From Allacma fusca (Eukaryota > Arthropoda > Collembola > Symphypleona > Sminthuridae): a stretch of 64,000 nt of DNA. A program made the translations under genes and the position numbers. The notes below the pieces were generated by a model. The model was not told where the DNA came from, did no database searches, and worked only from the letters and a program-made list of their open reading frames with translations. The stretch spans positions 32,240,001 through 32,304,000 of the forward strand of contig OX359246.1 of NCBI GenBank assembly GCA_947179485.1, in the 5' to 3' direction. Of the stretch, positions 19,336-48,357 are shown in pieces; the first letter of the stretch is position 1, and every line of letters begins with the position of its first letter.

Positions 19336-20234
19336 AAGGGATAGGGCGGGGTGAAGCAAGTGTTCCACTCGCGCAAAAGAGCATGAAGCCCTCTGGTAAT
19401 CACAGAAGAAGTACACGATCAGTCGGTTATTACGGGGTTAGGTCTTGTTAAAAGAGTTTGAACTACCCTGCGTATTGTCTGTTTTTAAGGACGAAGTTCC
19501 CTAATAGTATTGTCGGAAAATCCGTGATATCCGGTGCCCATGGCTATCACTGTTACAAATAATTACTTTTATTTACATTTTGCCGCTTTTTGTTAAAAGC
19601 CGTTCCTTCCTTCATATTGTAAATTAATCCCAACGGGTGTTAACATAATCTCCAGCTAGTAGTTATTGAGCCAGGCGATTGCATATTTGTATTTCCTGCT
19701 TGAAAATTGCAGTTCATGTATTTATAAGTACAATTAAATGACTAAAATGTCTCTTTTGAACGCAAAGCAATGTTTATTTCACGGAAATGATTTCTTCACA
19801 GCTGTATATCCGACAAATTTATGTCCCGGGTGTAATCCTAGAACATTTCCGTGGTATAGAATTCGCACGGCAAAGAACGAGCAAAAGAAACGATCCGCAA
19901 AATAATTTTCCCAAAATAATTAAATAGTACTAACTCTGTGTATATTTTGAAGTTAAATACAATATTTAATGTTAAGAGTGTTGTCCATGACATTAAACAG
20001 GCTTCCGGTCATTTATCATCAATTTGAGCCTGCTGCTCAGATTTTAAGCTAAAAACGCATTAGTCCCAGAACCCAATTAAAATTACGACATTAAAATATT
20101 AGTATTACGTTCAATTCAAGTGCACATGGTAATTTCCCAAGCAGTTTGGCAATTTAGCCATTTACATTAACCCTAGACACAGGATTCAAGCCTTGCTATT
20201 TAAAACTAAGAATATTCCTCAGCTTATATTCACA

Positions 20235-22517: not shown

Positions 22518-23727
22518 GGGTATGGAAAAAGTTCCCTATCCTGCGAATCCGGTTAGTTGAACACATGGTCAAGGCGGTTACGCAGGTAGAAACGGCGGGG
22601 TAGTTGGGCAAAATGTTTTTGAGGTACCCAGATAGTTGGGCAAAACAAATTGGGATGCCAAGGGAGTTGGGCAAAGAAAATTTGGGCTACCCAGGTAGTT
22701 GGGCCAAAACAAATTGGACTGCCAAGGTAGTTCGGCAAAACAAATTGGTCTATCCAGGTAGCTGGGCAAAAATATTTTGGGCTGCCCAGGTAGTTGGGCA
22801 AAGAATCTTTGGGCTACCCAGGTAGTTGGGCAAAGAAAATTTAGGCTACCCAGGTAGTTGGGCAAAAAAAATTTAGGCTACCCAGGTAGTTGGGCAAAAA
22901 AAAATTGGGTTTCCCAGGTAGTTGGGCAAAAATATTTTGGGCTGCCCAGGTAGTTGGGCAAAAATATTTTGGTTTGCCCAGGTAGTTGGGCAAAAATATT
23001 TTGGGCTGCCCAGGTAATTTGGCAAAGAAAATTTTTGCTACCCAGGTAGTTGCGTAAAATAAATTTGGGCTTTCCAGGTGGTTGGGCAAATAAAATTTGG
23101 GCTACCCAGGTACTTGGGCATAGAAAATTTGGGCTACCCATGTAGTTGGGCAAAAATGTTTTGTCCTAATCAGGTAGTTGGGCAAAAAACATTTGGGCTA
23201 TCCGGGTAGTTGGGCAAAGAATCTTTGGGCTACCCAGGTAGTTGGGCAAAGAAAATTTAGGCTACCCAGGTAGTTGGGCAAAGAAAATTTAGGCTACCCA
23301 GGTAGTTGGACAAAAAAAATTGGGTTTCCCAGGTAGTTGGGCAAAAATATTTTGGGCTGCCCAGGTAGTTGGGCAAAAATATTTTGGTTTGCCCAGGTAG
23401 TTGGGCAAAAATATTTTGGGCTGCCCAGGTAATTTGGCAAAGAAAATTTTTGCTACCCAGGTAGTTGCGTAAAATAAATTTGGGCTATCCAGGTGGTTGG
23501 GCAAATAAAATTTGGGCTACCCAGGTACTTGGGCAAAGAAAATTTGGGCTACCCATGTAGTTGGGCAAAAATGTTCTGTCCTAATCAGGTAGTTGGGCAA
23601 AAAACATTTGGGCTATCCGGGTAGTTGGGCTAACTTGCCGGCGGGATTTTGGCCATTTTTTCTGGTGGGTTAGGTGGCCAACTACCTATTTTAGAATAGT
23701 TGGGCATGTGGAACTTTTTCCATACCC
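22518..23727. mobile_element. Inverted-repeat element filled with a 32-bp minisatellite
   Basis: The ends gggtatggaaaaagttcc (22518-22535) and its exact complement (23710-23727) bound an array of about 33 units of 'aggtagttgggcaaaaatat' + 'tttgggctgccc'. It sits inside the hAT-type element. A second end of the same family occurs at 18312. Superfamily unknown; the surrounding GGGTA-rich sequence hides any target duplication. Multiple open frames across the array arise because 32-bp units cycle through frames without stops. Confidence 0.65.
22615..23632. repeat. 32-bp minisatellite with 416-bp higher-order period
   Basis: Monomers vary at several positions, but the order of variants repeats: the run starting 'caaagaatctttggg' at 22799 recurs at 23215, a shift of 416 bp or 13 monomers. 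Each monomer contains TGGGCA and TGCCCA separated by an AT-rich core, allowing a small hairpin. Confidence 0.85.
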
Positions 23728-26893: not shown

Positions 26894-28983
26894 ATGGATT
26901 ACGAAGATTCCAGCGTTTATGAAGAAGAATACACACCTGGGAACTTTGAATCGTGTGTGACTTCCAATGATTTGGTAAAATAAAATAAAATTCAAGAATT
27001 TTAAGTGACTACAATATAATTGGCTACAAATAAATACTACATACAATTAATTTACTCAATATTGCAGATTTTGGAGAGAATTTTGTACTTTATGACATTC
27101 GACGACCTCTTGTCAAGTGCTCGGATCAATAAGCGATGGAATAAATTATCAAGATGGGAGCTCGGGAGGAACAGGAAATGTTTGGTAAAAATTGACAAGG
27201 ACCTTCCCTGTCAAGACTTGCTTCGTCTGAAGGAACAGTTTGAAGGAAAGCCCACATTCCCATTTCAGGGCCTTTCCATAAGTTATTGTGGCCATAGAAA
27301 TTGCAAATGGGTTGAAGACTACCGTGCTTTGGAAAGTACGGGATTTTGGAAAACTTTGCCCATGAAGTACCTTAGAGTCACTTTGGAGAAGGACACGGAA
27401 TGCTTAGCTATGCAACTTATCAAATTACTGGTGAACCAGTGCTCACACGAGATACAAGAACTGGTTGTTTCAACTGAGTACTATTCAATTGGTGATGTTC
27501 CAGATTTATTTGACATTAAAAAGGAAAAACGACATAATTGGTTACCCCAGCTGACTTCATTGGAGGTAGGGGATACCCAACACGAGAGGATTTTGCACCA
27601 GCTGGTTGCAGCAGCACCGACTATTCAAAATATTTATGGACACGTCCGTCCGCATCATCTATTCAAATTGTTGGAAATGCGAAAGGCAGCGTTAATAACG
27701 GAATTTATTTGTGATCCTACAAGTCCGACAGATGCAGATACTCTTTTGTGTTTTGCCGAATTAAAGCCGAAGCTACAGCAATTGAGAATTGCAGACCGGA
27801 CAGCAGATAAGGAACCCTGGTCAACTGTTACAGCGTCTTTGTTAGATTCTTGTAGCGCAACTTTGCACCATTTGGAAATTGAGCTCCTGGATTTGATTTT
27901 GTTGACATTGTCGGAGAAACTGATTTTACCAAACTTGAAACACCTCGATGTCAAATTTAATGATAGATTAGATAAACAGCTAGGATTTTTTGTGATGAGC
28001 AAAATTAATTTTGATTTTGTATTTCCAAATTTAAAATCCTGTAAAATTTCGAGCAGCTCTTATGAAAGTTTGTATTCTCAAGAACAATTACAATTGATTC
28101 CGGCTGAATTGATCCACAAACATTTCCTATGCTCGACAGTTAGACAGATAACGTTAAGTGAAAACTGTTTTGATTTAGGGATAGAAAGTGGGTGCCGGTC
28201 TGTGTCCTCGCTTTTTCCTAATGTGACTTGTTTTAAAATCGAAAATTGTAGGCACCCGGGAACGTATTTGAAGTATACTTTGGCCAATTGGCAAAACTTA
28301 GAAAGTATTTTTATAAGCACAGTTGAATACCCTGGGCCTATAACAAATTTGGACATTTTATTTTGTGGGATTTCTAAAGAAGAATGGACATATTTGCGTT
28401 CCCTTGAAAAAACAAGTCCAGGATTTCTTCAACATGTTGAATTAGTACCTTCTGCTTGGTCTCTTTTACATTTGAAAAGTACGACAATCGAACTGTTATT
28501 TACAGACAATTAATATAAATATTCAAGGATGAACCTACTTATAATGTTGGATGTAATTTTGTATATGAACTGTCTTTTAGATGCTAAGTCCTTAAAAATA
28601 TCAGTCATCCATAATGACCGGTGTCCCGAACCCAGACGAGAGGATTCTCTGCTTTTGTCTTCCCTAACAGGACATTTGGTATTTTCGAAAATGTCGGAAT
28701 TAGATGTAGAATTAACCAGTTCGGACTGCCTATCAAAAATAGAAAATTCATGCTGTGAGTTTATTAAGCAGACCTAATTTGCTTTCTTAAAATTTCCATG
28801 AAACCATAAATACCTTAATGCAAAAGAATTTTAAAAATGAGTCCGTGCTCACATTTTCCCACGTAACTATGTACAAAAAGACTAATTCAAATGTTTTATT
28901 TGGCTATTATTCTAGGTCTTGCATTCGATGACTTACGTAAATTCGCGACTATTTCTGAAATGAAAGGCAAACGGCAACGTTGA
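26894..28983 (+). CDS. F-box/LRR-like protein, family A copy 3 (four exons)
   Basis: Predicted 577-aa protein from exons 26894-26974, 27068-28478, 28581-28754 and 28916-28983. Leader MDYEDSSVYEEEYTPGNFES, then the split F-box and irregular leucine-rich repeats. Splice sites are GTAAAA/AG, GTACGA/AG and GTGAGT/AG. The tail ends KGKRQR. It is closest to A4 in the middle of exon 2, where long runs such as the part encoding SSLFPNVTCFKIENCRHPGT are shared. The receptor gene expected downstream is missing here. SCF adaptor function is inferred from the family. Confidence 0.85.
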
Positions 28984-32392: not shown

Positions 32393-32910
32393 TGTAAGAG
32401 TAGGTTATGGTTATACCATGAAATCCTAACTCCTGGATTATTTACTTATGTAATTGTCAAGAAATTGTAAATAATTGAAAATCGTGCTGATGGAAGGAAT
32501 GATTATGAATAAACGATTGAGTGTGATTTTACATTAATCCGAAGACTAATTGCTTTTATTTATGATTGAAACTAAAAGGAAAAGGAAATGAAGATTAACA
32601 ACTAAAAATAGGTGTTACTGGAATGACTCTCAGTTATTCACTGAAGAGTCTGGAAGAATCTTAAACTTAACAAGTGGCTACTTGAGCCTATTTTTACAAT
32701 CTTAAGTCTAGACGTTACATCATAACGGATGTAACGGGACGTTGACACTCGTCGGCTTTTAGCCGATGGGAAGTGCTTACATTGCACCTTTACAATAAGT
32801 GTTTAAGTAACTTTGAACTGACTTAACCTAAGGTTGTGTGTTTCACAACTTAATTAATTATTCATGTGAGACTTAACTAATTTATGTAATTTCTATATAC
32901 ATACCTAACA
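32393..32910 (-). repeat. 3' LTR (518 bp)
   Basis: On the minus strand it begins TGTTAGG and ends CTCTTACA (TG...CA). I compared it line by line with 41033-41550 and found no difference. It is preceded on the minus strand by a short purine stretch ending CGCGGGA, the probable polypurine tract. Confidence 0.95.
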
Positions 32911-33177
32911 TCCCGCGCGGTCGGGGAAAATTTTGTCCCCAAAATTTAATAATTTGCATTTAAAATTCATATTATGTTAGTACAATTGGTATGTATGTTT
33001 GAACGAAAGATAGGTAGAATAAAGAAGAGATAGGTCAAAAAAAAAAAAATTATTTTTGTGTTTTTGTTTACAAGCTAGTACACATACTGTAATCATTTAA
33101 GGCGAAGGTGATAACAGGTGTAAAATCAATATTGTATTAGTACAACCTATCGTTATAAAATCAAAGTGAGCTTAAAA

Positions 33178-34125
33178 CTAGGCTGGAGTCCGGGCAGACA
33201 GCTGGTTGGATAAATTGTTGAGGGCTACAATTGGTGGGTACGGGTCATTGTTGTGTGGGCGGGGATTATTGATGAAGTAGGCGCTGGGTAGGGCATGAGA
33301 GATTCGGGAGTTCTGACTGTTTCTTTGACGATACCGGTAATAACAATATAAACCATATATAATTAAACCAAAACCAATAATGGTTGAAAGAGCAGTACTT
33401 GATAATGTAAAAATATGGAGGAGAACTTGGGAATCGCCCTCGCCAACGCCGAATTCCATCTTTGGAACCGGAAGAACGGGAAGAATTGGTTCCGGTGCCG
33501 TTTGCTTAGCATGTACAGGCGTAGAGAGGGTAGTAGTGAGAGTAACTGTCTGGCCGGGCTCATCCTTCTTATTCTGTGAAGAGAGAAAAGAATTATGAAT
33601 AGATTTCCATTCTTCTAACATTTGAGTTATGTTGGCATCATAATTATTAACATCTTTGAAAGGCTTAAAAGTATCGTCTTTATAATCGTCAATCGTAATT
33701 GGTGAATTTATCAAGAGTCGTTTTTCGAGTGGGGAAGGAGTGAGCGGAGGAGGAGGAAGGGTTTCCAGTTCAGGTTTAGGAATTTCTGGGAAGGTGTTGG
33801 AGCGAGAGGGAATAAAATCCAAGATTTTACTTATAATTGGTGGGGCTACCATAAGAGCAGCTCCAGCAGCCATAACTTTGACTGCATTATTTTTCTTGGC
33901 AGGGGAAGCCTGCATGGGAAGATTAAAATTTTTGTTACCGTTTCGAGCCATGGAAGGTAATGATTGGATACTGACTGACCGTTGTAGAGGTACCATTTTG
34001 TGCATTGAATTGGTCCGGGCCATGTTCAATTTTGTTCCGGCACCTGTCAGCTTGGAAAGGTTGGGGAGGCTTCCCCAAATGCCAAGTGGAGCACATTCAC
34101 AGGCAAAAATAAAAAGAAAAATCAT
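33178..34125 (-). CDS. ORF4: envelope-like type I membrane protein (315 aa)
   Basis: I start it at the ATG at 34125, five bases after the ORF3 stop, because this begins a clear signal peptide (MIFLFIFACECA). The open frame extends far upstream, but that part overlaps ORF3 in another frame and is likely spurious. Visible parts: signal peptide 1-12; a basic stretch; a hydrophobic segment at about 83-104 (VMAAGAALMVAPPII); a proline-rich linker with EKR at 134-136; an NIT glycosylation site at 165; a membrane anchor at about 239-260; and a tyrosine-rich basic juxtamembrane tail. The order resembles a small envelope or glycoprotein subunit. Neither a furin site nor a fusion peptide could be confirmed, so 'envelope-like' rests on topology and position only. 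Confidence 0.6.
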   Translation of the reverse strand: MIFLFIFACECAPLGIWGSLPNLSKLTGAGTKLNMARTNSMHKMVPLQRSVSIQSLPSMARNGNKNFNLPMQASPAKKNNAVKVMAAGAALMVAPPIISKILDFIPSRSNTFPEIPKPELETLPPPPLTPSPLEKRLLINSPITIDDYKDDTFKPFKDVNNYDANITQMLEEWKSIHNSFLSSQNKKDEPGQTVTLTTTLSTPVHAKQTAPEPILPVLPVPKMEFGVGEGDSQVLLHIFTLSSTALSTIIGFGLIIYGLYCYYRYRQRNSQNSRISHALPSAYFINNPRPHNNDPYPPIVALNNLSNQLSARTPA

Positions 34126-34130
34126 AATTA

Positions 34131-35090
34131 TTAGGGTTGAAAACTCGACGGGGCTTCCACGAATTCCCCTTGTTCGTTGAGAACGAGTTCCGGGTAGATT
34201 CGGTGAGGTTGATGGAGAGGAGTGAGTTGTATGGTTTCCATTATCGGTTGGGGTCTGAGGTCGATCACCGTCCCAGTCGTCGGAGTCCATTGCTGCGGCG
34301 GCTTGACATGCGTCGTACCAGTCATCATATGAGTCGTTGGCGGGGGGCCGGGCGTCAGAGTTGGGAGAGGGCGAGTTTGGCAAACTGTCGTCATCACTTC
34401 CGGTGATGTCACTTTCGGAAGTGAAGGTATATGTACAGGGCCTTGTTGAGGCGGCTGGGCGAGAGGGTTTTGAATGGGGTCCGGTGGAGCAGTTGTCAGG
34501 AGTTGTTGAGGCAATGTCAGAGTTGGGCCTTGACGTGGCCCGTGTTTCTTGACCCAATTGGATCGACGGGTTTGGATTGCACAAGTGTTGGCTGATTCCA
34601 AACATGCCCGAGATATTTGTTCGAACCGAATCTGCGGATCGATGGAAATAACGGGCGTCGCTGAGACGTAATTCGGTGGGGCGTCTCGTAGTTGTAGGAG
34701 AAATTCGTTCCACATCTGAGATTGTTTCACTGTGGCTTGGAAATAAGTTGCGCTCAACTGGTCCAGAAGAGAGGGAATTTGGTCGGGTAATACAATTCCG
34801 ACAGCAACATGGCGGAAGGTCCTCTTGAGAATAGGAATTGAGGAGTCGTAACAATGTAGTTCGTTCCCAGACGCGTCGGCAAATTGATATGGAAATATCT
34901 GAACTGTGCAGATTGATACCGGGCAACAGATGAGTGTGTCCGGGGTGCCGGGGAGATAAACTTTGATCAGTTCCGTCCATGGATTGTCGGAGAGGCGGAT
35001 AGCAGGATTGATACCCAGAGTTGTCGGGTATTGGACAATGCCTGGCACATAAGGGTACACAGGCGGGGACTGGGGGTTGTTGCTGGTCAT
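34131..35090 (-). CDS. ORF3: 319-aa protein of unknown function in the LTR element
   Basis: The frame starts MTSNNPQSPPVYPYVPGIVQ six bases before the end of pol and stops at 34131. The first 140 residues look globular, with several cysteines (DTLICCPVSICTVQIF); the rest is proline/glutamine/threonine-rich and ends EAPSSFQP. No signal peptide or membrane segment is visible. It lies between pol and the membrane-anchored ORF4 with a five-base gap before the next ATG, a layout that suggests coupled or spliced expression. I did not recognise a family. Possibilities are a surface subunit made without its own signal, or an accessory protein. Confidence 0.55.
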   Translation of the reverse strand: MTSNNPQSPPVYPYVPGIVQYPTTLGINPAIRLSDNPWTELIKVYLPGTPDTLICCPVSICTVQIFPYQFADASGNELHCYDSSIPILKRTFRHVAVGIVLPDQIPSLLDQLSATYFQATVKQSQMWNEFLLQLRDAPPNYVSATPVISIDPQIRFEQISRACLESANTCAIQTRRSNWVKKHGPRQGPTLTLPQQLLTTAPPDPIQNPLAQPPQQGPVHIPSLPKVTSPEVMTTVCQTRPLPTLTPGPPPTTHMMTGTTHVKPPQQWTPTTGTVIDLRPQPIMETIQLTPLHQPHRIYPELVLNEQGEFVEAPSSFQP

Positions 35091-35095
35091 TGTGG

Positions 35096-38000
35096 TCAGA
35101 CATGGGAAAATGTAACTTTCTTTGTTTTATTTCGTAAACGTACGGAACGTCGAAGTGGATGATTCGTATCAATAGGTTGGGGCGGTTTGAGAATTGATTT
35201 TAACTTTGTGGAGTGATAACCAAAATTTTGTGGCGAGAAGTTTGGAGGAGGAGAAGTTAAACGCTTAACTGGACTGGCTTCAGATGAAGTGGACGGTTGT
35301 AGTTTCATTTTGCGTGAAGGACGTGTAGAATCTTTATGGATGGGAGAAGGGAGAGAGGAACCGGAGTCTGGGGTGTCGGAGGGAAATTGTGTCAACCAAG
35401 CGTCAAATTCGTGCTGGTCTTCCGTAGTATATACATACTCGGGATGAATAATGCCATCCCCCAAATCAATTTTTATGAGCTTGAGTTGGGAGAGGTGACA
35501 CTTAATACTAGGTCTAAGCTTAGTAGAAGGAAAGGTTAAAACTAAGTCAGCATTATTGTTCTTATCAATATAAGTTATGGTATAAGGTCCAACCCAACGA
35601 CAAAGAAGTTTGTCAGACAAACCAATTTTTCGCTGAGGGAGATAAAATCGAACGTGGGAACCAACTTTAAACTCTAAGGGTTGGTACATAGCATCAAATC
35701 GTTCTTTGGCTTGTAATTGAGCCTTTTTAATTAATTGGGATATTCTTTGATGCATGATTTTGACCTGAGAAGCGCTGAGCTGAGTCATTTGTAAAAGTGT
35801 ATTGGGGATGGAGTTGAGTAGAGGGGCTGGAGGAGCTCTACCGAAAAATGCTTGAAAAGGGGAAATTTTTGTAACTGAATGCTCGGAAGTATTATATGCA
35901 GTGATTACATACGGAACAAATATGTCCCAATCTAACTGATTGTCCGAGACAAATTTGCTGAGCATAATTGCGAGAGTTTGATTTAATCTTTCTACAACTC
36001 CGTGAGAACGGGGGTGAAAGGGCATACTGACATTATGTGTAATATTAAACCGTTTTAATAATTCTTGTAGAGTTGCAGATTTGAACTCCGCAGCTCCGTC
36101 GGAAATTAATATAGACATGCCTGGAAATGTTAAAATAAAAGATTCCAGATGCATGGCTATATGAGCAGCCTCTCTGTTGGGAAGGAGTGAAGTATGTACC
36201 CATTTGGTAAATAAGTCGGTGAGGACGAGTACATATTTATTGCCTCTCGGAGTTTCACGAAAGGGGCCTAATAAATCCATAGCATACGTGCTTGCTGGAA
36301 TTTTTATGGGAATGTTTTTCAGACTGTCCATACGTAATTTGGTCATGTGTTGGCGACTTTGGCACTCTGGGCAGTGAGTACAGTGTTTAAATGTGTCTGA
36401 GGTAATTGATCTCCACCAATAAAATGGACGGAGACGTGCCAAAGTCCGTTGAAAATTTAAATGACCTCCAAGGGGATGATTATGAGCATTTTGTAACACG
36501 ATGGGAATCATAGCTTTAGGGATGACTAAAAGTTTAGGGTTGCGTGGATTAAATTGAATAAAATAAATACCATCATCATTTGGAATTAACTTGGAGCGCT
36601 TTTTCTGCAATAATTTATTTAAAGTATGATCAATAGCTTGAGCATGCTTTAAATCAGCAGGATTAATGAGAGGTATTGCTGGGAGTGGATTGGGGCTGGA
36701 TGTTGGAGATTGGGCTGAAAGGCCTGGAATTGTAAGGTCATCTTCAGTGTCTTTTGTAGTGGAAAGAGCGTAGGGGCATCGGGAGACACCATCTACGTTC
36801 CTATGTAGGGTACCTTTCTTATACCTAATTACATAGCGAAATTGTTCTAAAATTACAGCCATACGAGTAAGTCGGGCGGTGGGATTACGTTGGCATTTTA
36901 AATAACATAAAGCATGATGGTCAGTAACAATTATGAAAGGTTTGAGATATAAAAATTCTCGAAGCTTTCGTGTTGCAAATACTACGGCTAAACATTCTTT
37001 TTCGGTAGCACCCCAATTTTTCTCCGCTGGAGTCAAAGCTCTGGAAATAAAATAAATTGGGTGTTCACCATCCTCAAAGTGTTGATGTAAAATGCCAGCT
37101 ATGGCTAAATTACTTGCGTCCGTATATAAAATACATGGGAGTGTGGGATCGTAATGCCTAAGTACGGGAGCTGTGCATAAAGCATTTTTGAGAGTCAAAA
37201 ATGCCTTATCACAGTCAGGGCTCCAATGGTATAGTGAATGTTTCTTCAATAATCCCTGGAGTGGAGCAGCTATTTGAGCAAAATTCCAAATAAATCTGCG
37301 ATAATAACCTATAGTGCCTAAAAATTTACGTAGTGTTTCTAAATTATTAGGTTTGGGCTGTTGCATGATTGCAGCTACTTTTGCTGATTCTGTGGATAGA
37401 CCTTTTTGTGACAAAAAGAATCCAAATACTACATGTTCTTGCATACCAAAGAAACACTTTTTGGGATTCATGCGAAAATTAACTCTAGCGAGTCGTTGAA
37501 ACACAAGTTCTATTGCAACCAGGTGAGAGGGGAAGTCTTTACTATAGGGTATAATGTCATCAATATAAGATACAGCGTGTGTGTATCTTAAAGTACCGAG
37601 AGTACGAGTAGCGAGTCTTTGAAAGTAGGCGGGGGCATTTTTCAGACCAAAACATACACGTAAGTACATGTATAGTCCGAATTCAGTGACAATAGCAGTT
37701 AAATGCTGATCATCCGGGTGGATGAGGGCTTGGTAATAACCGCTAAATAAATCTAAAGGGGAAAAATACGCAGCATTTCGTAATTGAAAAAGCAAGTCAT
37801 CAATCCTTGGGAGAGGGAAAATTTCGTCTATTGTGATTTTATTCAGTTTTTGAAAATCACAGACGAGTCGCCATTTACCTAATTTTTGGCGGACTAAAAA
37901 TACAGGTGTGGAATAATTGGAGTTTTCACAGGGAACAATTATACCGGCTTGAATTAATTTATCTAATTCTTGCTTTAAAATCTCACGCTCCGTAGTGCTC

Positions 38001-38887
38001 AAGCGATAGGGTTTAGCTTGAACTGGAGTGTCAGAGTTTAACCTAATTCTCATGGGAGGTAAGGTACAAACTTGAAGATCCATAAGAGTCCACGCAAATA
38101 AATATGAATATTTATTGAGGAGATTTATGATCGAGGCGCGTTCAGCGGGCCGTAATTTTGGATTAATATTTAATGAGAGAATTTGTTCCGGAGTAAAAGG
38201 GGTTGGATTTTGAGGAATCACCGGAGCTGTGTTTAAGCTTTGGGTAAAATCATAGCGTTGAGCATGACCTAAAAGAGTGTCAGCGGGAATAATCTGGGTA
38301 GATGTGGAAATGTTTGTGGCAAGCAAAACATTTTTCGCTGGGTTGATAACTGGAGGAAAAATTACTTTGTATTGTTTTTCAATGAGTGGATGAGGGTTGA
38401 AAAATGTCGTGTGAGACGTGTGTAATGGAGTAGTGGGTACATACATTTGGTGCCGAGGGGGAAGTTGGATAGTAAATAATGTTTTGACGGGAGAGGAACA
38501 GCCGCACTCAGATGAGCAAGTGGCAGAGTATGCATGCTTACGAAAGTAATGACATACGTGAGAGTTGTATAGGGAGTTTGAGTTCAGATGTATATGAAAG
38601 TCAAATTGTGTAATAAACTTGCAGCCTAGAATGAGTGGAGGAGTGAGCGTTTCAAGGACATGGGCCTCGGTTGTGTAAAAGTAGTTATCAAGTTGGAACG
38701 TTAAGGAGGCTATATGGGACGTAGGAATGCGAGCTTTATCTGCTGTGATAACAAATCTTTGTGGGCAAGGAGTGATGACTGCACTGGAGGGGATGTGATT
38801 CTTTTGTATTAAATTATGAGAAGCTCCTGTATCAATTAATGCGTCAATGGAGACATCATCAAAATAACACATAATATATGGGCACAT
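35096..38887 (-). CDS. pol: Pol polyprotein: protease, reverse transcriptase, RNase H, integrase (1263 aa)
   Basis: The domains are in Ty3/gypsy order. Aspartic protease: DTGAS at 19-23. Reverse transcriptase: VCDFQKLN near 342, catalytic D379 and YIDD at 441-444. RNase H: TDAS at 589-592, E629 and D656. Integrase: zinc finger with H804, H809, C839 and C842; catalytic triad D871, D930 and E966 with D-35-E spacing; and a GPY-type chromodomain-side motif (WVGPY) at 1098-1102. All key residues are present. The ATG at 38887 is 20 bases after the gag stop, and pol lies in the -1 frame relative to gag, so a -1 ribosomal frameshift or reinitiation could express it. The C-terminal tail past 1140 is low-complexity and basic. 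Confidence 0.95.
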   Translation of the reverse strand: MCPYIMCYFDDVSIDALIDTGASHNLIQKNHIPSSAVITPCPQRFVITADKARIPTSHIASLTFQLDNYFYTTEAHVLETLTPPLILGCKFITQFDFHIHLNSNSLYNSHVCHYFRKHAYSATCSSECGCSSPVKTLFTIQLPPRHQMYVPTTPLHTSHTTFFNPHPLIEKQYKVIFPPVINPAKNVLLATNISTSTQIIPADTLLGHAQRYDFTQSLNTAPVIPQNPTPFTPEQILSLNINPKLRPAERASIINLLNKYSYLFAWTLMDLQVCTLPPMRIRLNSDTPVQAKPYRLSTTEREILKQELDKLIQAGIIVPCENSNYSTPVFLVRQKLGKWRLVCDFQKLNKITIDEIFPLPRIDDLLFQLRNAAYFSPLDLFSGYYQALIHPDDQHLTAIVTEFGLYMYLRVCFGLKNAPAYFQRLATRTLGTLRYTHAVSYIDDIIPYSKDFPSHLVAIELVFQRLARVNFRMNPKKCFFGMQEHVVFGFFLSQKGLSTESAKVAAIMQQPKPNNLETLRKFLGTIGYYRRFIWNFAQIAAPLQGLLKKHSLYHWSPDCDKAFLTLKNALCTAPVLRHYDPTLPCILYTDASNLAIAGILHQHFEDGEHPIYFISRALTPAEKNWGATEKECLAVVFATRKLREFLYLKPFIIVTDHHALCYLKCQRNPTARLTRMAVILEQFRYVIRYKKGTLHRNVDGVSRCPYALSTTKDTEDDLTIPGLSAQSPTSSPNPLPAIPLINPADLKHAQAIDHTLNKLLQKKRSKLIPNDDGIYFIQFNPRNPKLLVIPKAMIPIVLQNAHNHPLGGHLNFQRTLARLRPFYWWRSITSDTFKHCTHCPECQSRQHMTKLRMDSLKNIPIKIPASTYAMDLLGPFRETPRGNKYVLVLTDLFTKWVHTSLLPNREAAHIAMHLESFILTFPGMSILISDGAAEFKSATLQELLKRFNITHNVSMPFHPRSHGVVERLNQTLAIMLSKFVSDNQLDWDIFVPYVITAYNTSEHSVTKISPFQAFFGRAPPAPLLNSIPNTLLQMTQLSASQVKIMHQRISQLIKKAQLQAKERFDAMYQPLEFKVGSHVRFYLPQRKIGLSDKLLCRWVGPYTITYIDKNNNADLVLTFPSTKLRPSIKCHLSQLKLIKIDLGDGIIHPEYVYTTEDQHEFDAWLTQFPSDTPDSGSSLPSPIHKDSTRPSRKMKLQPSTSSEASPVKRLTSPPPNFSPQNFGYHSTKLKSILKPPQPIDTNHPLRRSVRLRNKTKKVTFSHV

Positions 38888-38907
38888 TGATGAAGTAGGT
38901 GACAGGT

Positions 38908-40512
38908 TTATTGTGGGTAAGTTATGGAGGGATATTGAAGATTCGCAAAGTGATTCTGGGGAGTTTGATTGGTTTGGGGCGGATTGGGATTGAATGAAAT
39001 TTCCAATCTGTGGGCATTTTGGTCGTTCCGGCGATTGTTGCCGTTGTTCTGATTGTTGCGGAAGCCGTTGTTGTTTCCGCGGAAATTGTTGTTCCGAAAG
39101 TTCGGGCGGGGACCCTGACCACGCTGGTTGGGCCCCCTCTGTTGGTTTCCCGAACGGCAGTCACGACTGATGTGACCAAACTTATTACAATTATAACATT
39201 GCATGCCTTTGTGGGGATTTTGATTTTGTCCTCTGTTATTATTGTTATTATTATTATTATTATTATTATTGCCTCGGGGCTGGTGGGGAACTGGTTGATG
39301 AATGTTACCTTGATTACCGCGGGGATTATTATTATGAGAATTGCCGCGGCCATTGCCACGACCTCGTCCGCGGCCAGGGACAAAAGCAAAATTAGCTTGG
39401 GCATTTGGCGCATCAGACAAGGTAAGTTTTTGGATTGTTTCTTCCAAAGACTTAACTTTTGCAGCCATATCAGAAGGTCCAGCAGTTGTATCTGCAAATT
39501 CTCGTTGTTCGCAAAAACGAACGAGAGCAGCTATGCTTGTAAATGGAAAACCTGCCGCTGCAGATTTGTACTTGGGAAGGAGTCCTTCCATTCCCCAAGC
39601 AACACGGTCAGGTTGACTCATTGTTGGGTCATAGCGAGTGCAAATACTATCAACGTCATACAAAAACTTGGCACTCGTCTCATTGTCTTTTTGCTTACGG
39701 GAAATTAATTGATTGAGATAAACCTGTCGAGGTTTGGCATAGCGCTCACGGAGAGCCGTGAAGAATGTATCAATACTAATAATGGTGGGTGGCGCTATGG
39801 CGAGTTGGGTTTGCAGCCATTGAAAGGGGTCACGAGCTAATAAATTGGGAGTGTGTCCTTGGAGAGTGGGCCAATCCCATTGGTATTGGGCCACGACACG
39901 TTGAAGGTCAATAATAAAATCATGAACATCATGAGTTGCGGGGAGGAATTGTTTAATCTTTTGAAAGTCAACAATGGAATGAATGGGTGCGGTATTTACC
40001 GTGACATTGACTGGGGTTGCTGCGGCTGCGGCGGCCATTTTGAATGGTTTGACTTTGCGAGTTTTGGTAGAGGGTCCGTGACGTGAAAAATGTTGGATTT
40101 TACGGGCTTTTAATATTTGTCGCTTAAAAGAGGGAACGGTTCGTGTAACTGGAGTAACTAATGGAAGCGCAGGTAACGGTGGAGGGAGTGGTGGTGGTAT
40201 AGATATTGGTGGTGGAGTGCCTGGTGGAGTAGTATATGGTGGACTGGGAGTTCTCGGAGGAGAAACTTGTGCGGGAGGGACTACTGGAGGTAATGGCGGT
40301 GGAGGTGGTGTGTTTATAGGTAATGGCGGAGGTAATAGAGGTGTCTTTTTACTACTGCTAGTGGAAGCTTTTGCTTTGGCTTTTGCTTGTTGTAAAACTT
40401 TGGCTAATTCGGAAGCGTCTTTTAAATCAGGGTCAGAATTTTTACGAGTGACGCGACTTGTAGAAGGCTTAGGGTCAGGTTTGGATGCTGAGGGCTTCTT
40501 TTTATCGGACAT
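38908..40512 (-). CDS. gag: Gag polyprotein (534 aa)
   Basis: Starts MSDKKKPSASKPDPKPSTSR. Residues 60-120 are extremely proline-rich, about 165-345 look like a capsid domain (VDFQKIKQFL... VRFCEQREF), then an RG/GN-rich stretch, a run of about 12 asparagines, and a CCHC zinc knuckle with C439, C442, H447 and C452 (C-X2-C-X4-H-X4-C), followed by an asparagine/arginine-rich tail. Gag forms the particle and binds the RNA genome. Length is typical for gypsy-like elements. The asparagine run is encoded by a trinucleotide microsatellite (about 39236-39275). Confidence 0.9.
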   Translation of the reverse strand: MSDKKKPSASKPDPKPSTSRVTRKNSDPDLKDASELAKVLQQAKAKAKASTSSSKKTPLLPPPLPINTPPPPPLPPVVPPAQVSPPRTPSPPYTTPPGTPPPISIPPPLPPPLPALPLVTPVTRTVPSFKRQILKARKIQHFSRHGPSTKTRKVKPFKMAAAAAATPVNVTVNTAPIHSIVDFQKIKQFLPATHDVHDFIIDLQRVVAQYQWDWPTLQGHTPNLLARDPFQWLQTQLAIAPPTIISIDTFFTALRERYAKPRQVYLNQLISRKQKDNETSAKFLYDVDSICTRYDPTMSQPDRVAWGMEGLLPKYKSAAAGFPFTSIAALVRFCEQREFADTTAGPSDMAAKVKSLEETIQKLTLSDAPNAQANFAFVPGRGRGRGNGRGNSHNNNPRGNQGNIHQPVPHQPRGNNNNNNNNNNNNRGQNQNPHKGMQCYNCNKFGHISRDCRSGNQQRGPNQRGQGPRPNFRNNNFRGNNNGFRNNQNNGNNRRNDQNAHRLEISFNPNPPQTNQTPQNHFANLQYPSITYPQ

Positions 40513-41014
40513 AAATTATAACGTAAGTATGTACGTACCGTGACGGTGGTTCATGGATATGAAATTTAACACTGTGCATTTACTATATAAAATTCCTCCT
40601 GGATGAGGTGGGAACGGTACTGAGCTCCGTGGCTGTCCGTTGAGTATACCCAAATCCTCAGGGCATCGGTCGGTGAAGCGCAGGTAAATCCGTCTGCCTT
40701 CCGTGTACAAGAAATAATAACCCCGTTTATCAATAAAACTTACGAGGGTTTCTTCGACCGGTCACAGTCAATAACTGTGGACTCCTCTGGGGGTAGTCCC
40801 GAATGAGCTGTGCGTGTTGCAACGTCAAAAATGCAGGAATGTAACCTCTGCGTGGCCAAAACTGTAAATCTCAAAAATTTTCACGAAATATGACACGTTA
40901 TTCAAACTTGCCTGGTAATGAAATCAATTCTTAAAGTAAATCGATTGTTTCCCAAGGGGAGTGATAATTGAGAGTAATTCGGGAGCATCGCCAGGGAAAT
41001 AATATTTTGGCAAT
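40513..41014 (-). other. Untranslated leader of the LTR element
   Basis: About 500 bases between the primer-binding site and the gag ATG. Expected to hold packaging and possibly splice-donor signals; none was identified specifically. Confidence 0.5.
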
Positions 41015-41032
41015 GTTTTACAGAGGCCACCA
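41015..41032 (-). other. Primer-binding site of the LTR element
   Basis: Immediately after the 5' LTR on the minus strand the sequence reads TGGTGGCCTCTGTAAAAC. It begins TGG, the complement of a tRNA CCA end, and abuts the LTR as expected in Ty3/gypsy elements. The tRNA species was not determined. Confidence 0.65.
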
Positions 41033-41550
41033 TGTAAGAGTAGGTTATGGTTATACCATGAAATCCTAACTCCTGGATTATTTACTTATGTAATTGTCAA
41101 GAAATTGTAAATAATTGAAAATCGTGCTGATGGAAGGAATGATTATGAATAAACGATTGAGTGTGATTTTACATTAATCCGAAGACTAATTGCTTTTATT
41201 TATGATTGAAACTAAAAGGAAAAGGAAATGAAGATTAACAACTAAAAATAGGTGTTACTGGAATGACTCTCAGTTATTCACTGAAGAGTCTGGAAGAATC
41301 TTAAACTTAACAAGTGGCTACTTGAGCCTATTTTTACAATCTTAAGTCTAGACGTTACATCATAACGGATGTAACGGGACGTTGACACTCGTCGGCTTTT
41401 AGCCGATGGGAAGTGCTTACATTGCACCTTTACAATAAGTGTTTAAGTAACTTTGAACTGACTTAACCTAAGGTTGTGTGTTTCACAACTTAATTAATTA
41501 TTCATGTGAGACTTAACTAATTTATGTAATTTCTATATACATACCTAACA
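41033..41550 (-). repeat. 5' LTR (518 bp)
   Basis: Same sequence as 32393-32910. It should contain the element promoter. It is the upstream LTR because gag and pol read leftward from it. Confidence 0.95.
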
Positions 41551-41670
41551 ATATTATTAATACTATTAATAGTATGAGGAAACCTAAAGTTACTGAACAT
41601 CTTCAACTCAATGAAGCTTAGCATACCTCATAATTTTGAGTATTCTGTAAAAATAAATAAATTTATAAAT

Positions 41671-42162
41671 AATTTTAATAATTTAAAATTGGATTACCTG
41701 ATACCATGATAGAAACAAACTGTTTCCACAAAAGGCTTATATCTGGCGACCACTAACAGTTGATACTTAAGACCAGAAACCTTGTTAGCTGCAGACACCG
41801 GTGTTTCGTCCTATTTGGGACTCGTCAGTACAGCGCAAACAGAAAAAAATGACTATAAAAATAGCGACTGACTTCGTGAACCGTCAGTGGCAGAATGAAG
41901 ATTGACGTAGAAAATAAAATTATTATTTTCTCAACTTCAGTTGCTGCTCGAAATAATTCAATGTTTGTTTTTTGGAAAAGAGATGGTTACATCTCAATAT
42001 CCATGGTGCACAACGGAGCAGCTATTTACAAAACTTGAATTCCGACCAGTACGGATTGATTATAAAGAGGCAAAGAGTTTTTCATATCACGAATTTGATA
42101 ATTTTAATAATTTAAAACTGGATTACGTGATACCATGATAGAAACAAACTGTTTCCACAAAA
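41671..42162 (-). mobile_element. Retrozyme-like non-autonomous retroelement carrying a hammerhead ribozyme (492 bp)
   Basis: The insert is exactly bounded by a 10-bp target duplication atttataaat (41661-41670 and 42163-42172). It consists of a 429-bp unit (41671-42099) followed by the first 63 bp of a second unit (42100-42162, 61 of 63 identical to 41671-41733). One complete hammerhead ribozyme lies in the unit on the minus strand. Tandem units with a self-cleaving hammerhead and short target duplications are the known hallmark of animal retrozymes and of Penelope-like element ends. No coding frame of substance is present. It is inserted in the TA-flanked element. Confidence 0.7.
41788..41834 (-). 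ncRNA. Hammerhead self-cleaving ribozyme (type I, very short stem III)
   Basis: On the minus strand the parts are in order. Stem I 5' side GCUGUA; core CUGACGA; stem II GUCC with loop CAAAUA and GGAC; core GAA; stem III ACACC/GGUGU with no extra loop; cleavage nucleotide C (41794); stem I 3' side UGCAGC. All invariant core positions (CUGANGA, GAA, A15.1-U16.1, H17) are satisfied, and all helices pair, with one G-U in stem I. The palindromic, loopless stem III implies either strained monomer folding or cleavage as a dimer, as described for short-stem-III hammerheads in retroelements. Confidence 0.88.
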
Positions 42163-42287
42163 ATTTATAAATGCATTTAGTTACAGTTATTGTCTAAAAA
42201 CATTAATAGTATATAGTTAACCATTAGTAACATATAGTCAGGAATTTGTCACTCCCTTGGAAACCACTATATAGGAAATTCACTGTA

Positions 42288-43275: not shown

Positions 43276-45416
43276 ATGGATTTCAAAGATTCCAGCGTTC
43301 ATGAAGAAGAATACACGCTTGGGAACTTTGAATCGTGTGTGACTTCCAATGATTTGGTAAAATTTAGTGGTACAAATTTAAAATTCAGGAATCATAATTG
43401 GCTGCAAATATTACACATAATTGTTTTATTCAATATTGCAGATTTTGGAGAGAATTTTGAACTTCATGACCTTTGATGATCTCTTGTCAAGTGCTCGGAT
43501 CAATAAGCGATGGAATAAATTAGCAAGATGGGAGCTCGGGAGGAACAGGAAATGTCTGGCAAAAATTGACAAGGACCTTCCCTGTCAAAATGTCCTCCGT
43601 CTGAAGGAACAGTTTGAGGGAGAGTCATATATACCATATCAAGGACTTTCCATAGGTTATGCTGGCCATAGAAATTGTAACTGGGTTGAAGACTACCGTA
43701 GTTTGGAAAGTACGGGATTTTGGAAAACTTTGCCCATAAAGTACCTCAGAGTCCCCTTGGAGCAGAACACGGAATGTTTAGCAATACAGATTCTCAGACT
43801 ATTGGTAAACCAACGCTCGCACGAGATACAAGAACTGGTTATAACAAGTTTGTATTACCGAATTGAGGATGTTTCTGAATTCTTTGACATTGACCCGAAA
43901 ATACAACACAATTGGTTACCCCAACTGAAATCATTGGGGATAGGGGATATTAAAAACGAATGGATGTTGCTTCAGCTGGTTGCAGCAGCACCATCTACTA
44001 GAAATATTTATGGACACGTCCGTCCGCATCATCTATCCAAATTGTTTGAAATGCGAAAGGCAGCGTTCATAACGGAATTTATTTGTGACCCGGAGAGTCC
44101 GACAGATGCTTATACTCTTTTGCGGTTTGCCGAATTAAAACCGAAGCTACAACAATTGAGAATTGCAGCCCGGTCAGCAGATAAGGAACCCTGGTCAACG
44201 TTTACAGCTTCTTTGTTAGAGTCTTCTAGGACAAGTTTGTACCATTTGGAAATTGAGCTCCTGGAATTGATTTTGTTGACATCGTCGGAGAAATTGATTT
44301 TACCAAACTTGAAACACCTCCATATCAAATTTAATGATAGATTAGATAAACAGCTAGGATTTTTTGTGACGAGCAAAATTAATTTTGAATTTGCATTTCC
44401 AAACTTAAAATCCTGTCAATTCTCCAGAAGCTCTTACGAAAGATTGTATTCTCAAGAACAATTACAATTGATTCCGGTTGGGTTGATGCACAAAAATTTC
44501 TTATGCTCAACGGTTAGGCAGATGACGATAAGTGACAACTGTTTTGATTTAGCAATAGAAAGTGGGTGCCGCTCTGTGTCCTCGCTTTTTCCTAATGTGA
44601 CTTGTTTTAAAATCGAAAATTGTAGGCACCCGGGAACGTATTTGAAGTATACTTTGGCCAATTGGCCAAACTTAGAAAGTATTTGTATAAGCACAGTTGA
44701 ATACCCTGCGCCTATAACAAATTTGGACATTTTATTTTGTGGGATTTCTAAAGAAGAATGGACATATTTGCGGTCCCTGGAGAAAAGTAGTCCAGGATTT
44801 CTTCAACATGTTAAATTAGTACCTTCTGCCTGGTCCTTATTACATTTAAAAAGTACGGGTAGAAGTATACGAATTTTACATTTATTCAAAAATTTCCAAG
44901 TAACATCGTTATATTCAACATTTACTAGTTGAACTTCAACATTCGAACCGGAGGTCTTGTATGAGCTACTTTTAATATGCTGTCTTTAATTGTATGCATT
45001 AACTGTCTTATAGGTCTGAAGTCCTTAATGATATCGGTCATGCATAACGACGGGTGTCCTGTGCCCAGACGTGATGATTTTGTGCTTTTGTCTTCCCTGA
45101 CAGGACATTTGGTATTTTCTAGAATGCCCGAATTAATTGTAGACTTAGCCTATTCAGACTGCCTATCGAAGCTAAAAAATTCTTGCTGTGAGTTTATTAA
45201 GCAGGATGAATTTTCTTTTTAAAATTTTTCATGAAACCATAAATACACTAATGCAAAGGAATTTTAAAAATGAGTCCATGCTCATGTTTTTCCATGTAAC
45301 TATATACAAATAGACTAATTCAAATGTTTTATTTGGATATTATTCCAGGTCTTGCTTTCGATGACTTGCATAACTTCGCTACTATTTCAGAAGTGAAAGG
45401 CAAACGTAAACGCTAA
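43276..45416 (+). CDS. F-box/LRR-like protein, family A copy 4 (four exons)
   Basis: Predicted 577-aa protein from exons 43276-43356, 43442-44852, 45014-45187 and 45349-45416. Leader MDFKDSSVHEEEYTLGNFES; F-box split by intron 1 as ...NDL / ILERILNFMTFDDLLSSARI; then irregular leucine-rich repeats. Donors are GTAAAA, GTACGG and GTGAGT. Without splicing, exon 2 would read 26 codons past the donor into a non-conserved tail, so the spliced model is preferred. The tail ends KGKRKR. Likely an SCF substrate adaptor, by family inference. Confidence 0.85.
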
Positions 45417-46322: not shown

Positions 46323-48357
46323 ATGGATCAAATCTCTGAAACAGTGGAGGAGTCGATCATCACTGCTAATGATTTGGTATTTTTTATGGAAAATTCTTGC
46401 GTTCAATATTTTTTACATGATTTGAGCAATACAATAACATGGAGCTGTCAACATTTGCTATTAAGTTTAAGATCTTAATCTTTTTTATTTTAGATTTTGA
46501 AAAGAATCCTACACTTCACAGCTTTCCCTGATCTGCTAACATGTAGGCTCGTGAGTACAAGATGGAAGCACTTATCCCAATTTGTTTTACTTCAAGAAAG
46601 AAAATGTTTTGCAAAAATCGGAAGCGATAAACCCTGTCAGCAGCTCGTCCGTCTAAATGAGTTCCTTCAAGATTCGGAAGGAACCCCACCCTTCAATGGA
46701 CTGTCCATGGGTCACAGTTACCATTTCGTGGACCATTGTTTACAAGATATCAAACTTTTGAGAACAATTTATTCCGCAGTGCTTGAGCACTGCCCCATCA
46801 GATACTTAAATGTGCATCTGGATCAGTACACGGACTGCCTGGCAATGCAGTTTATAAAAATTTTGGTGGAAGAACGTGGAGCGGAGATTCAAGAATTAAG
46901 TGTGTCCACGACGGATTTTGAATTCCCTTTCCTCCTGGATTTCTTTAGTAATACAAAAAAAGACATGGGAAAATGGCTGCCGAATTTAATTTCCCTGGAA
47001 TTAAAAACAGAGCAAGATGGTCAGTTACTCCAAGAGATGGTAGCAGTAGCCCCGAACCTCCAAAGGTTCGGTGGCTGGATTTGTCCACACCACCTGCCAA
47101 ATCTTCTCGCAACGAAAAGGGCAAAGTTTATTAAAGAATTCCATATGCGAATATTTAGTCACAATTTAGCTTCCTGTTTCGAATTTTCGAAACTCCAACC
47201 AAAACTTGAAAGCCTTTGGATCTCTTCCCGAGACTATCATGGAGGAAGTGATAATGACACATATGTCCCAGAGCTTTGCTCTACACTGTTAAACAGCAGT
47301 TCAGCTAGTCTGAATTACTTGGATATTGATCACTTAGACCTGGTCTTGTTGGTGTCAAAGACACAGTTTTGTCTGGAAACCTTGTCAAGCTTAAACGTTG
47401 ATTTCAATTTAGGACTTGATAGATATCTGGGGTACTTCTCCATTAGTAGGATTAATTTCCAGGAGTTATTTCCTAATTTAAAGATGATTAAAATCTCTAC
47501 AAGTAAAGACCCCTATTCTGTAAGAGATCTGAAAAGCATTCCAGAATCCTTCAAAAATTCCGATAGCTTTTACAGCTCTCAATCCGTGGTTAATGTTCAG
47601 ATCCGAGGAACTCCTTTCAGACCTGTTTCCCTGAGTGCGCGGATACCATTGGCAAGAGTTTTTCCTAACGTGAAACATGTCGGGATCAAATATTCCTCCG
47701 ATATAACTTCATATTTGGAGTATGTTTTACCCGCGTGGCCAGATTTGGAGTCCTTACAAATCACTGCAAATGAATACCCAAAGAATTTAACTAACTTGGA
47801 TAGGATATTCTGTGGGACTTCTGAGGAGGAATCCTTTCATTTACAGTCTTGGGAGTCAAAAGAACCCGGTTGTCTTCAAAATTATCAAATAGTACCTCTG
47901 AAGCGGTCTTTATTGCACTCAAAATGTACGGGTCTTATTTTCTGTAAAGGCATCGATGCGTACCATCAAAAATGAATAATATTAACATTTTCTTGTTTGA
48001 TTTTCTTGGGGTTTTCTAGATTTGAAGTCCCTTAAAATAAGGGTATGTCACAACGATAGCTGTCCCTTAAACACTAGGAGCTCTCAAGTGCTACTCTCAG
48101 CAGTATCTGGTCATTTGGTATTTTCAAGAATCCCTCATTTACGCCTGGAGATCATGAGATCGCTTTGCGGAGGTGGGGAGAATGGAATGTGCTGTAAGTT
48201 ATTTGAAACATGTGTGCTGAGTAATGCTTATTGTAAAAAAATGAAGGAATTATATATAATTTACGAAAATTATTTTGTTTTTTTTTTAGACTTCACCTTC
48301 AATGACTTACATCCATTTGCAAAACTATCAACAGACTCTGACAGCAATTATCCTTAG
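46323..48357 (+). CDS. Divergent F-box/LRR-like protein, family A copy 5 (four exons)
   Basis: Predicted 575-aa protein from exons 46323-46376, 46494-47925, 48020-48193 and 48290-48357. Exon 1 is shorter (18 codons, MDQISETVEESIITANDL), but the splice phase is the same and the F-box continues ILKRILHFTAFPDLLTCRLV. Exons 3 and 4 keep the 174- and 68-base lengths of the family. Shared motifs with A1-A4 include QYTDCLAMQ, SARIPLARVFPNVKHVGI and FNDL in the terminal exon. Sequence identity is far lower than among A1-A4, so the duplication is older and this copy may have a different target. Exon 3 also reads through to the end without a stop, so the intron 3 call rests on family conservation. Confidence 0.82.

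What the first reader, a model, noticed from the sequence alone, without database searches (positions are those of the whole stretch)
41671..42162. A retrozyme-like insert with a complete hammerhead ribozyme
The sequence shows every invariant hammerhead position on the minus strand (41788-41834), in a 429-bp unit followed by a 63-bp partial second unit, and an exact 10-bp target duplication atttataaat at both outer edges. The insert boundaries coincide precisely with the repeat boundaries. Known animal retrozymes and Penelope-like elements carry such type I hammerheads with very short stem III and move as RNA, often through circular RNA. This copy may belong to an undescribed family. No autonomous partner is visible in the window.
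Basis: partly seen in the sequence, partly recalled or inferred. Interest (0 to 1): 0.88.

Follow-up and report, generated by a model that had tools for sequence, protein, structure and literature searches.

The report
Springtail retrozyme with hammerhead ribozyme
This is a small mobile genetic element in a springtail that carries a self-cutting RNA; the shapes of its many genomic copies suggest it spreads by copying a circular RNA back into DNA, sometimes for more than one lap.

Summary
Window 41671-42162 (minus strand as RNA) holds a 429-nt unit plus 63 nt of a second, flanked by ATTTATAAAT, with a type I hammerhead at 41834-41788 (Rfam 46.8 bits). Of 105 loci examined, 95 share one 3' end (unit 427-429/1-9), while 5' ends scatter and copies reach about two units; direct repeats of 9 nt or more flank 25 of 96. 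This is the print of target-primed reverse transcription from one internal site, 123 nt past the ribozyme cut. Copies do not pile up at the cut; some overrun the start after one lap; one stop zone recurs on the second lap. At four of the five longest copies the two units are each other's closest or tied-closest relatives. A circular RNA template fits best. The genome has a Penelope-like family with like anatomy (fixed 3' end, direct repeats of 10-14 nt at 5 of 8 copies): the best candidate partner, though no sequence similarity was found. It is a new member of a known kind, metazoan non-LTR retrozymes. Activity, circularity and partner are inferred, not shown.

The parts
41671..42162 (-). Retrozyme insertion, 492 bp: RNA-sense 5'-[63-nt end of unit][429-nt unit]-3'
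41671..42099 (-). Full unit (429 nt here; 420-421 nt between the HHRs of the four double-HHR loci)
42100..42162 (-). Partial second unit, 63 nt (unit positions 367-429), 61 of 63 identical to the full unit; 5' end of the copy
41788..41834 (-). Type I hammerhead ribozyme (unit 266-312); predicted cut between 41794 and 41793 (after unit 306, GUC|UGC)
41671..41673 (-). Fixed 3' end of the family = inferred internal start of reverse transcription (unit 427-429), 123 nt downstream of the ribozyme cut
41721..41747 (-). Stop zone (about unit 353-379) in the full unit, where 5' ends of short copies pile up on the first lap
42150..42162 (-). Same stop zone met on the second lap; this copy ends inside it (unit 367)
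41661..41670 (+). Target-site duplication, copy 1 (ATTTATAAAT)
42163..42172 (+). Target-site duplication, copy 2 (ATTTATAAAT)

Best explanation
A non-autonomous non-LTR retrozyme of Allacma fusca. Transcripts with two hammerheads cut themselves after unit position 306 (inferred). The 420-429-nt monomer is closed into a circle by a host ligase (inferred). A reverse transcriptase supplied in trans, most likely from the resident Penelope-like family (inferred), nicks AT-rich DNA, primes at one internal site of the circle (unit 427-429; shown as the fixed 3' end) and copies around it. Most copies stop within one lap; some stop just after passing the start again, some run to nearly two laps (shown as lengths). 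Second-strand joining leaves direct repeats of about 9-15 bp (shown at a quarter of loci). Copies with two intact ribozymes can make new monomers (inferred).
For: Fixed 3' end: 77 of 105 loci at unit 427-429/1-2, 18 more at 3-9. 5' ends scattered, with no excess at the ribozyme cut: 2 of 47 at risk within 3 nt, 1.2 expected, so HHR-cut linear RNA is not the usual template. In 59 loci chosen only by their 3' segment and having the standard 3' end: second-lap recurrence of the first-lap stop zone 4 of 7 at risk (0.52 expected, P 0.0009); one-lap pile-up 4 of 12 at risk (1.14 expected, P 0.021); over all 85 such loci 5 of 10 (0.75) and 6 of 18 (1.71). Of those 6 one-lap copies, 4 carry 8-18 nt of unit end, exact or with one mismatch, before unit position 1. 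Units within long copies: 1 of 406 differences at L040, 0 of 301 at L047; L039, L040 and L043 closer to each other than to any other locus compared, L047 tied with 2% of them. Direct repeats of at least 9 nt at 25 of 96 loci vs 0.8% of controls; at least 12 nt at 13 of 96 vs 0.0000 of controls. Both HHRs at 46.8 bits at the four double loci. Penelope-like family: RVT_1 plus GIY-YIG in one 859-aa frame, 34 of 40 scored hits end within 14 nt, direct repeats of 10-14 nt at 5 of 8 truncated copies.
Against: No RNA data: cleavage, circles and expression are untested. No sequence similarity between retrozyme and Penelope-like element, so the partner rests on anatomy alone. An uncut multimeric transcript could give the same lengths. 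The pile-up zones were partly chosen after seeing the data, with small counts; the one-lap signal weakens from P 0.006 to 0.021 when copies with another 3' end are dropped. Of the 6 one-lap copies, L055 has only 5 nt of unit end and L054 a poor match. L088 is an exception (13 of 107 differences between its units), L041 is closer than only 90% of other loci, and L042, L046 and the window copy are uninformative. 71 of 96 loci show no exact direct repeat of 9 nt. Nine of 105 loci have 3' ends well away and one lies at 423. Energy folding prefers another fold to the hammerhead (-11.3 vs -8.6 kcal/mol).
Confidence: 0.7

Rival explanations
1. The template is an uncut linear multimer (or a transcript ending at unit 429), as reported in vitro for a lizard Penelope-like element where ribozyme mutants still insert; the hammerhead does other work.
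For: PMC11167929 (parts 1-2 of 4 read): internal start, and HHR cleavage not needed in vitro for that element. Four loci have two full HHRs and could supply multimers.
Against: Needs the ribozyme to stay uncut although the core is kept in 74 of 83 unit copies. Gives no reason for stops just past one lap. Units of one locus are near-identical in the best cases, which a linear dimer explains only if its source units were identical.
Confidence: 0.22
2. A LINE machinery, not a Penelope-like one, mobilises it, as with SINEs: the retrozyme 3' end is what a LINE enzyme recognises. (This rivals the partner, not the circular template.)
For: 5' truncation and duplications of this length are general to target-primed elements (established knowledge). 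Short A/T-rich overlap between element and target at many 3' junctions.
Against: No poly(A) tail at the 3' ends printed, and no shared tail seen: the 28 extra 3'-segment hits fetched all aligned to the retrozyme unit and by eye have different flanks apart from two duplicated pairs. The start is internal to the RNA, as reported for a Penelope-like enzyme. LINEs of this genome were not surveyed.
Confidence: 0.25
3. It is a DNA satellite spread by recombination, with the hammerhead a relic.
For: A diverged subset on C1:62.96-63.97 Mb shares strand and similar flanks, as expected of segmental duplication.
Against: Dispersed insertions with their own flanks on all six chromosomes, direct repeats at 25 of 96, fixed 3' and ragged 5' ends.
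Confidence: 0.03

Closest known systems
Metazoan non-LTR retrozymes (Cervera & de la Pena 2020, PMC7229834, parts 1-4 of 6 read)
   Same: Type I hammerhead, 150-450-bp low-GC repeat, no long frame, duplications longer than 4 bp, dispersed, host with a Penelope-like family.
   Different: The unit is at the long end of the published range, and no copy seen exceeds about two units. The insertion ends show a start site and lap structure that the parts I read do not describe. Expression and circles are not shown here.
Penelope-like elements (Poseidon of Anolis, PMC11167929, parts 1-2 of 4 read; and the A. fusca family at L143)
   Same: Fixed internal start tens of nt past a hammerhead cut, AT-rich target, tandem or partial-tandem copies, 5' truncation, direct repeats of similar length.
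   Different: The retrozyme has no enzyme frame, no detected sequence similarity, and a canonical instead of a minimal hammerhead.
Plant LTR retrozymes (PMC7761336, passages; PMC4918200, search listing only)
   Same: Hammerhead-bearing non-autonomous element with a supposed circular intermediate.
   Different: Type III hammerhead (PMC7229834), LTRs and 4-bp duplications, which do not fit here; PBS and PPT were not searched for.
Schistosome Sm-alpha repeats (recalled)
   Same: The hammerhead core of the Rfam type I model, matched closely here, resembles the schistosome ribozyme (recalled).
   Different: Sm-alpha is said to be Pol III SINE-like (recalled); here no A or B box by simple pattern and eight runs of four or more T in sense.

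Membership tests
Metazoan non-LTR retrozyme | Type I hammerhead ribozyme | tested here: met
   RF00163 46.8 bits, gathering 34; 64 of 74 scored genome hits over cut-off
Metazoan non-LTR retrozyme | Short tandem repeat of about 150-450 bp | tested here: met
   429-nt unit, 420-421 between paired HHRs; up to about two units
Metazoan non-LTR retrozyme | GC below 50% and no long coding frame | tested here: met
   36% GC; longest stop-free run 53 aa sense, 75 aa antisense over two turns
Metazoan non-LTR retrozyme | Multicopy, dispersed, with target duplications longer than 4 bp | tested here: met
   (repeats of at least 9 nt at 25 of 96 loci)
Metazoan non-LTR retrozyme | Efficient self-cleavage | not testable with these tools
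   Core kept in 74 of 83 unit copies; energy model prefers another fold
Metazoan non-LTR retrozyme | Loop 1-loop 2 tertiary contact | not tested
   No tool for it; helix I extension not modelled
Metazoan non-LTR retrozyme | Circular RNA of unit length in cells | not testable with these tools
   No RNA data; indirect support
Penelope-like element | Reverse transcriptase (with GIY-YIG) frame | tested here: not met
   No stop-free run over 75 aa in the unit; no similarity to the resident family
Penelope-like element | Fixed internal start of reverse transcription past the HHR | tested here: met
   Unit 427-429, 123 nt past the cut; it works like one in this respect only
tRNA-type SINE | Pol III A and B boxes | tested here: not met
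   No match to a simple (recalled) consensus on either strand; degenerate boxes not excluded
Plant LTR retrozyme | Type III HHR and 4-bp duplication | tested here: not met
   Best Rfam family is type I; 10-bp duplication

The most novel reading that the evidence does not exclude
A Penelope-like enzyme takes a ribozyme-made RNA circle in trans, primes it at one internal site from nicked DNA and copies it for one or more laps, so that retrozymes are circular-RNA parasites of Penelope-like elements. The start site, lap stop and second-lap stop in the springtail genome would be a genomic record of this step, which I found in none of the papers looked at.
Probability: 0.45. Interest if true: 0.78.

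Novelty: new member of a known kind. Interest (0 to 1): 0.6.

Why it matters
How animal retrozymes get back into DNA, and whose enzyme they use, is open: the 2020 review says their repeats show no conserved motif that would help deduce the partner (PMC7761336, passages). This family is little diverged (2.6% from the column majority), so its junctions can be read. They give a defined start site, evidence of lap-wise copying and a resident candidate enzyme with similar junctions, all directly testable with one RNA, one protein and springtail RNA.

Tried and rejected
Peak of 5' ends at the ribozyme cut: looked for and not found (2 of 51 at risk; 2 of 47). Shared tail with a larger element: the 28 further 3'-segment hits (14, all 28) align to the retrozyme unit and by eye have different flanks, except duplicated pairs L120/L121 and L138/L140. 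Similarity between retrozyme and Penelope-like element: BLAST with word 7, nothing better than E 0.035, scattered matches on both strands. Rfam found no hammerhead in the Penelope-like element at E up to 1; I place a minimal one at L143:742-780 by eye, from the recalled CUGANGA...GAA core. Solved structures: no match for the Penelope-like protein at E 0.001. HHR core in IMG/VR viral contigs: 0. Nick-site motif: dropped, because maximal duplication calls bias the base before them. HHR less diverged than the whole unit (1.9% vs 2.6%): not used, since many loci were found by their HHR. L169 did not reach its 5' junction and is not among the 8 Penelope-like copies counted; that comparison had no shuffled control.

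Full report
Observation. The insert is real. Rfam places a full type I hammerhead (RF00163) on the minus strand at 41834-41788 with 46.8 bits. The 65-nt direct repeat spaced by 429 is there and ATTTATAAAT flanks the insert on both sides. RNA sense is the minus strand: 5'-63 nt of unit end, then a 429-nt unit, 3'. The ribozyme occupies unit 266-312 and its predicted cut follows unit 306. Stem III is three base pairs closed by a palindromic CCGG loop (sequence; pairs counted).

Host. The window lies at G000:C8:32240001-32304000 in a 392.7-Mb genome of 91 contigs. The six large contigs agree within 0.01 Mb with the published chromosomes of the springtail Allacma fusca (81.9, 75.61, 66.08, 58.81, 55.59, 48.07 Mb; PMC10427803, passages). 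C8 corresponds to chromosome 2.

Family. The 492-bp insert finds 46 hits with 40 of 453 candidates scored. RF00163 gives 74 scored hits out of 49186 first-look candidates, 64 over the cut-off, 44 of them at the same 46.8 bits. I fetched the loci of both searches, and each of the 77 sequences compared, the window included, aligns to the unit. A 24-mer near the 3' end occurs 75 times with up to two mismatches, 0 in the reversed control; 28 further loci came from it. In all, 105 loci were analysed, including nine of one duplicated region and two duplicated pairs. Divergence from the column majority is 2.6% over the unit, so the family is young by sequence; no clock was applied.

Ends. 3' ends fall at unit 427-429/1-2 in 77 of 105 loci, at 3-9 in 18, at 423 in one, and elsewhere in 9. 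Without the duplicated region, one of each duplicated pair and L141 it is 66 and 18 of 93. The spread of a few bases I read as sequence shared with the target. 5' ends are scattered over the unit. Direct repeats of at least 9 nt join the two flanks at 25 of 96 loci against 0.8% of shuffled flank pairs; at least 12 nt, 13 of 96 against 0.0000. One of these, L043 (27 nt), lies in a local simple repeat. Fixed 3' end, ragged 5' end and target duplications are the marks of target-primed reverse transcription (established knowledge).

What was the template? A transcript cut by its own ribozyme would end at unit 306 and begin at 307. Insertions do not start at 306, and only 2 of 47 copies at risk stop within 3 nt of the cut, 1.2 expected. 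So the cut, if it happens, has been closed again, or the template was never cut. The length test uses 59 loci chosen only by their 3' segment and having the standard 3' end. Four of the 12 copies that complete a lap stop within 430-456 nt (1.14 expected, P 0.021); over all 85 loci with the standard 3' end it is 6 of 18 (1.71 expected, P 0.005). Of these six, L049, L050, L053 and L056 carry 8-18 nt of unit end, exact or with one mismatch, before unit position 1; L055 has only 5 nt and L054 matches poorly. The four therefore crossed the start point and then stopped, as expected if the enzyme runs into its own first-strand duplex on a circle (inference). A first-lap stop at 57-77 nt (11 of 59, 4.4 expected, P 0.004) recurs on the second lap at 486-506 nt (4 of 7 at risk, 0.52 expected, P 0.0009). 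The window copy, at 492 nt, is one of these. An earlier run that kept copies with other 3' ends gave 5 of 14 and 4 of 8. The zones were partly set after seeing the histogram, so the P values are guides.

Units of one locus. Fourteen loci allow a comparison. At L040 the units differ at 1 of 406 positions (nearest other locus 1.6%), at L047 0 of 301 (2% of others equally close), at L043 1 of 146, at L039 7 of 415; at L041 6 of 268, with 10% of others as close. L088 contradicts (13 of 107). L042, L046 and the window copy are no closer than about half of the other loci, and L044, L045, L048, L051 and L052 have short overlaps (40-68 nt) with 0 to 20% of others as close. This fits repeated laps on one molecule; conversion between units would look alike. 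The four loci with two full hammerheads keep both at 46.8 bits, and these could make monomers.

Partner. A GIY-YIG search gives 59 matches, many with one and the same score, in frames of up to 871 aa. L143 has an 859-aa frame with RVT_1 (4.6e-12) and GIY-YIG (2.2e-5) and an 843-nt repeat at 99.9% identity, spacing 2776: a tandem Penelope-like element. Of 40 scored hits to its 5' region (299 candidates), 34 end at query 235-248 and 6 run through. Twenty junctions read directly end at L143:835-848, eight of them at 840 and 15 at 840-844. A minimal hammerhead can be placed by eye at L143:742-780, cut after 777, so the start lies about 63 nt past the cut; Rfam does not report it. Of eight truncated copies with both ends read, five have direct repeats of 10-14 nt, one of them 11 nt from the boundary, and three have only 6-7 nt. 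In a lizard Penelope-like element reverse transcription starts inside the RNA, about 85-92 nt past the hammerhead cut by the numbers given there, on AT-rich targets (PMC11167929, parts 1-2). The retrozyme start, 123 nt past its cut, follows the same plan. Flanks of both elements are AT-rich, but so is the genome. There is no detected sequence similarity, and LINEs were not surveyed. The partner is therefore a candidate, not a finding.

Known or new. Animal non-LTR retrozymes are described (PMC7229834, parts 1-4 of 6), including circles seen on northern blots, a proposed circular template and Penelope-like elements as candidate partner. The review adds that no conserved motif helps to deduce the partner (PMC7761336, passages). 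Searches of the held library for hammerhead ribozyme with springtail, and for two of retrozyme, Collembola and hammerhead from 2021 on (25 of 27 listed), showed no such report by title and listing; searches joining retrozymes with Penelope-like elements or truncation listed no paper with this junction analysis by title. Most subscription papers are not held. New here, as far as I could see, are the springtail family and the junction evidence for start site and laps. That evidence speaks for published proposals and does not make a new kind of element.

Limits. No RNA data, no empty site (the flank searches did not complete, last), no second springtail genome. Energy folding of the ribozyme alone prefers another fold (-11.3 vs -8.6 kcal/mol), which is not decisive because tertiary contacts are not modelled.

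Noticed in passing
window 32393-41550: LTR element of Gypsy type on the minus strand: 518-bp LTRs identical at all positions, ATAT on both sides, frames with zinc knuckle, RT/RNase H/integrase and a weak protease match, and a third frame (33178-35199) without Pfam match in the envelope position. Its LTR ends 110 bp from the retrozyme duplication. Observed only.
   Followed up: partly
G000:C1:62957947-63972775 (L085, L086, L092, L094, L098-L102): Nine retrozyme copies about 82-85% identical to the window unit, all on one strand over 1 Mb with similar 3' flanks, four of nine with a hammerhead over the Rfam cut-off: perhaps an old copy multiplied by segmental duplication or a large satellite.
   Followed up: partly
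window 302-1747, 15973-17478, 27020-28513, 43421-44932, 46494-47975: Cluster of related F-box-like frames; of the two scanned (first and last) only the last matches the Pfam F-box over its cut-off.
   Followed up: no
window 11626-13839 and 20133-22325: Two closely related frames of about 730 aa that look like ionotropic receptors by eye; no Pfam match.
   Followed up: no
window 22599-23630: 32-bp minisatellite, about 32 copies.
   Followed up: no
L052, L066, L118, L060, L043, L141: A few copies have 3' ends at unit 18-65 instead of 429, perhaps a second, rarer start site like the 'tail' of Penelope-like elements; L043 lies in a simple repeat and L141 runs to the edge of its fetched stretch.
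   Followed up: no
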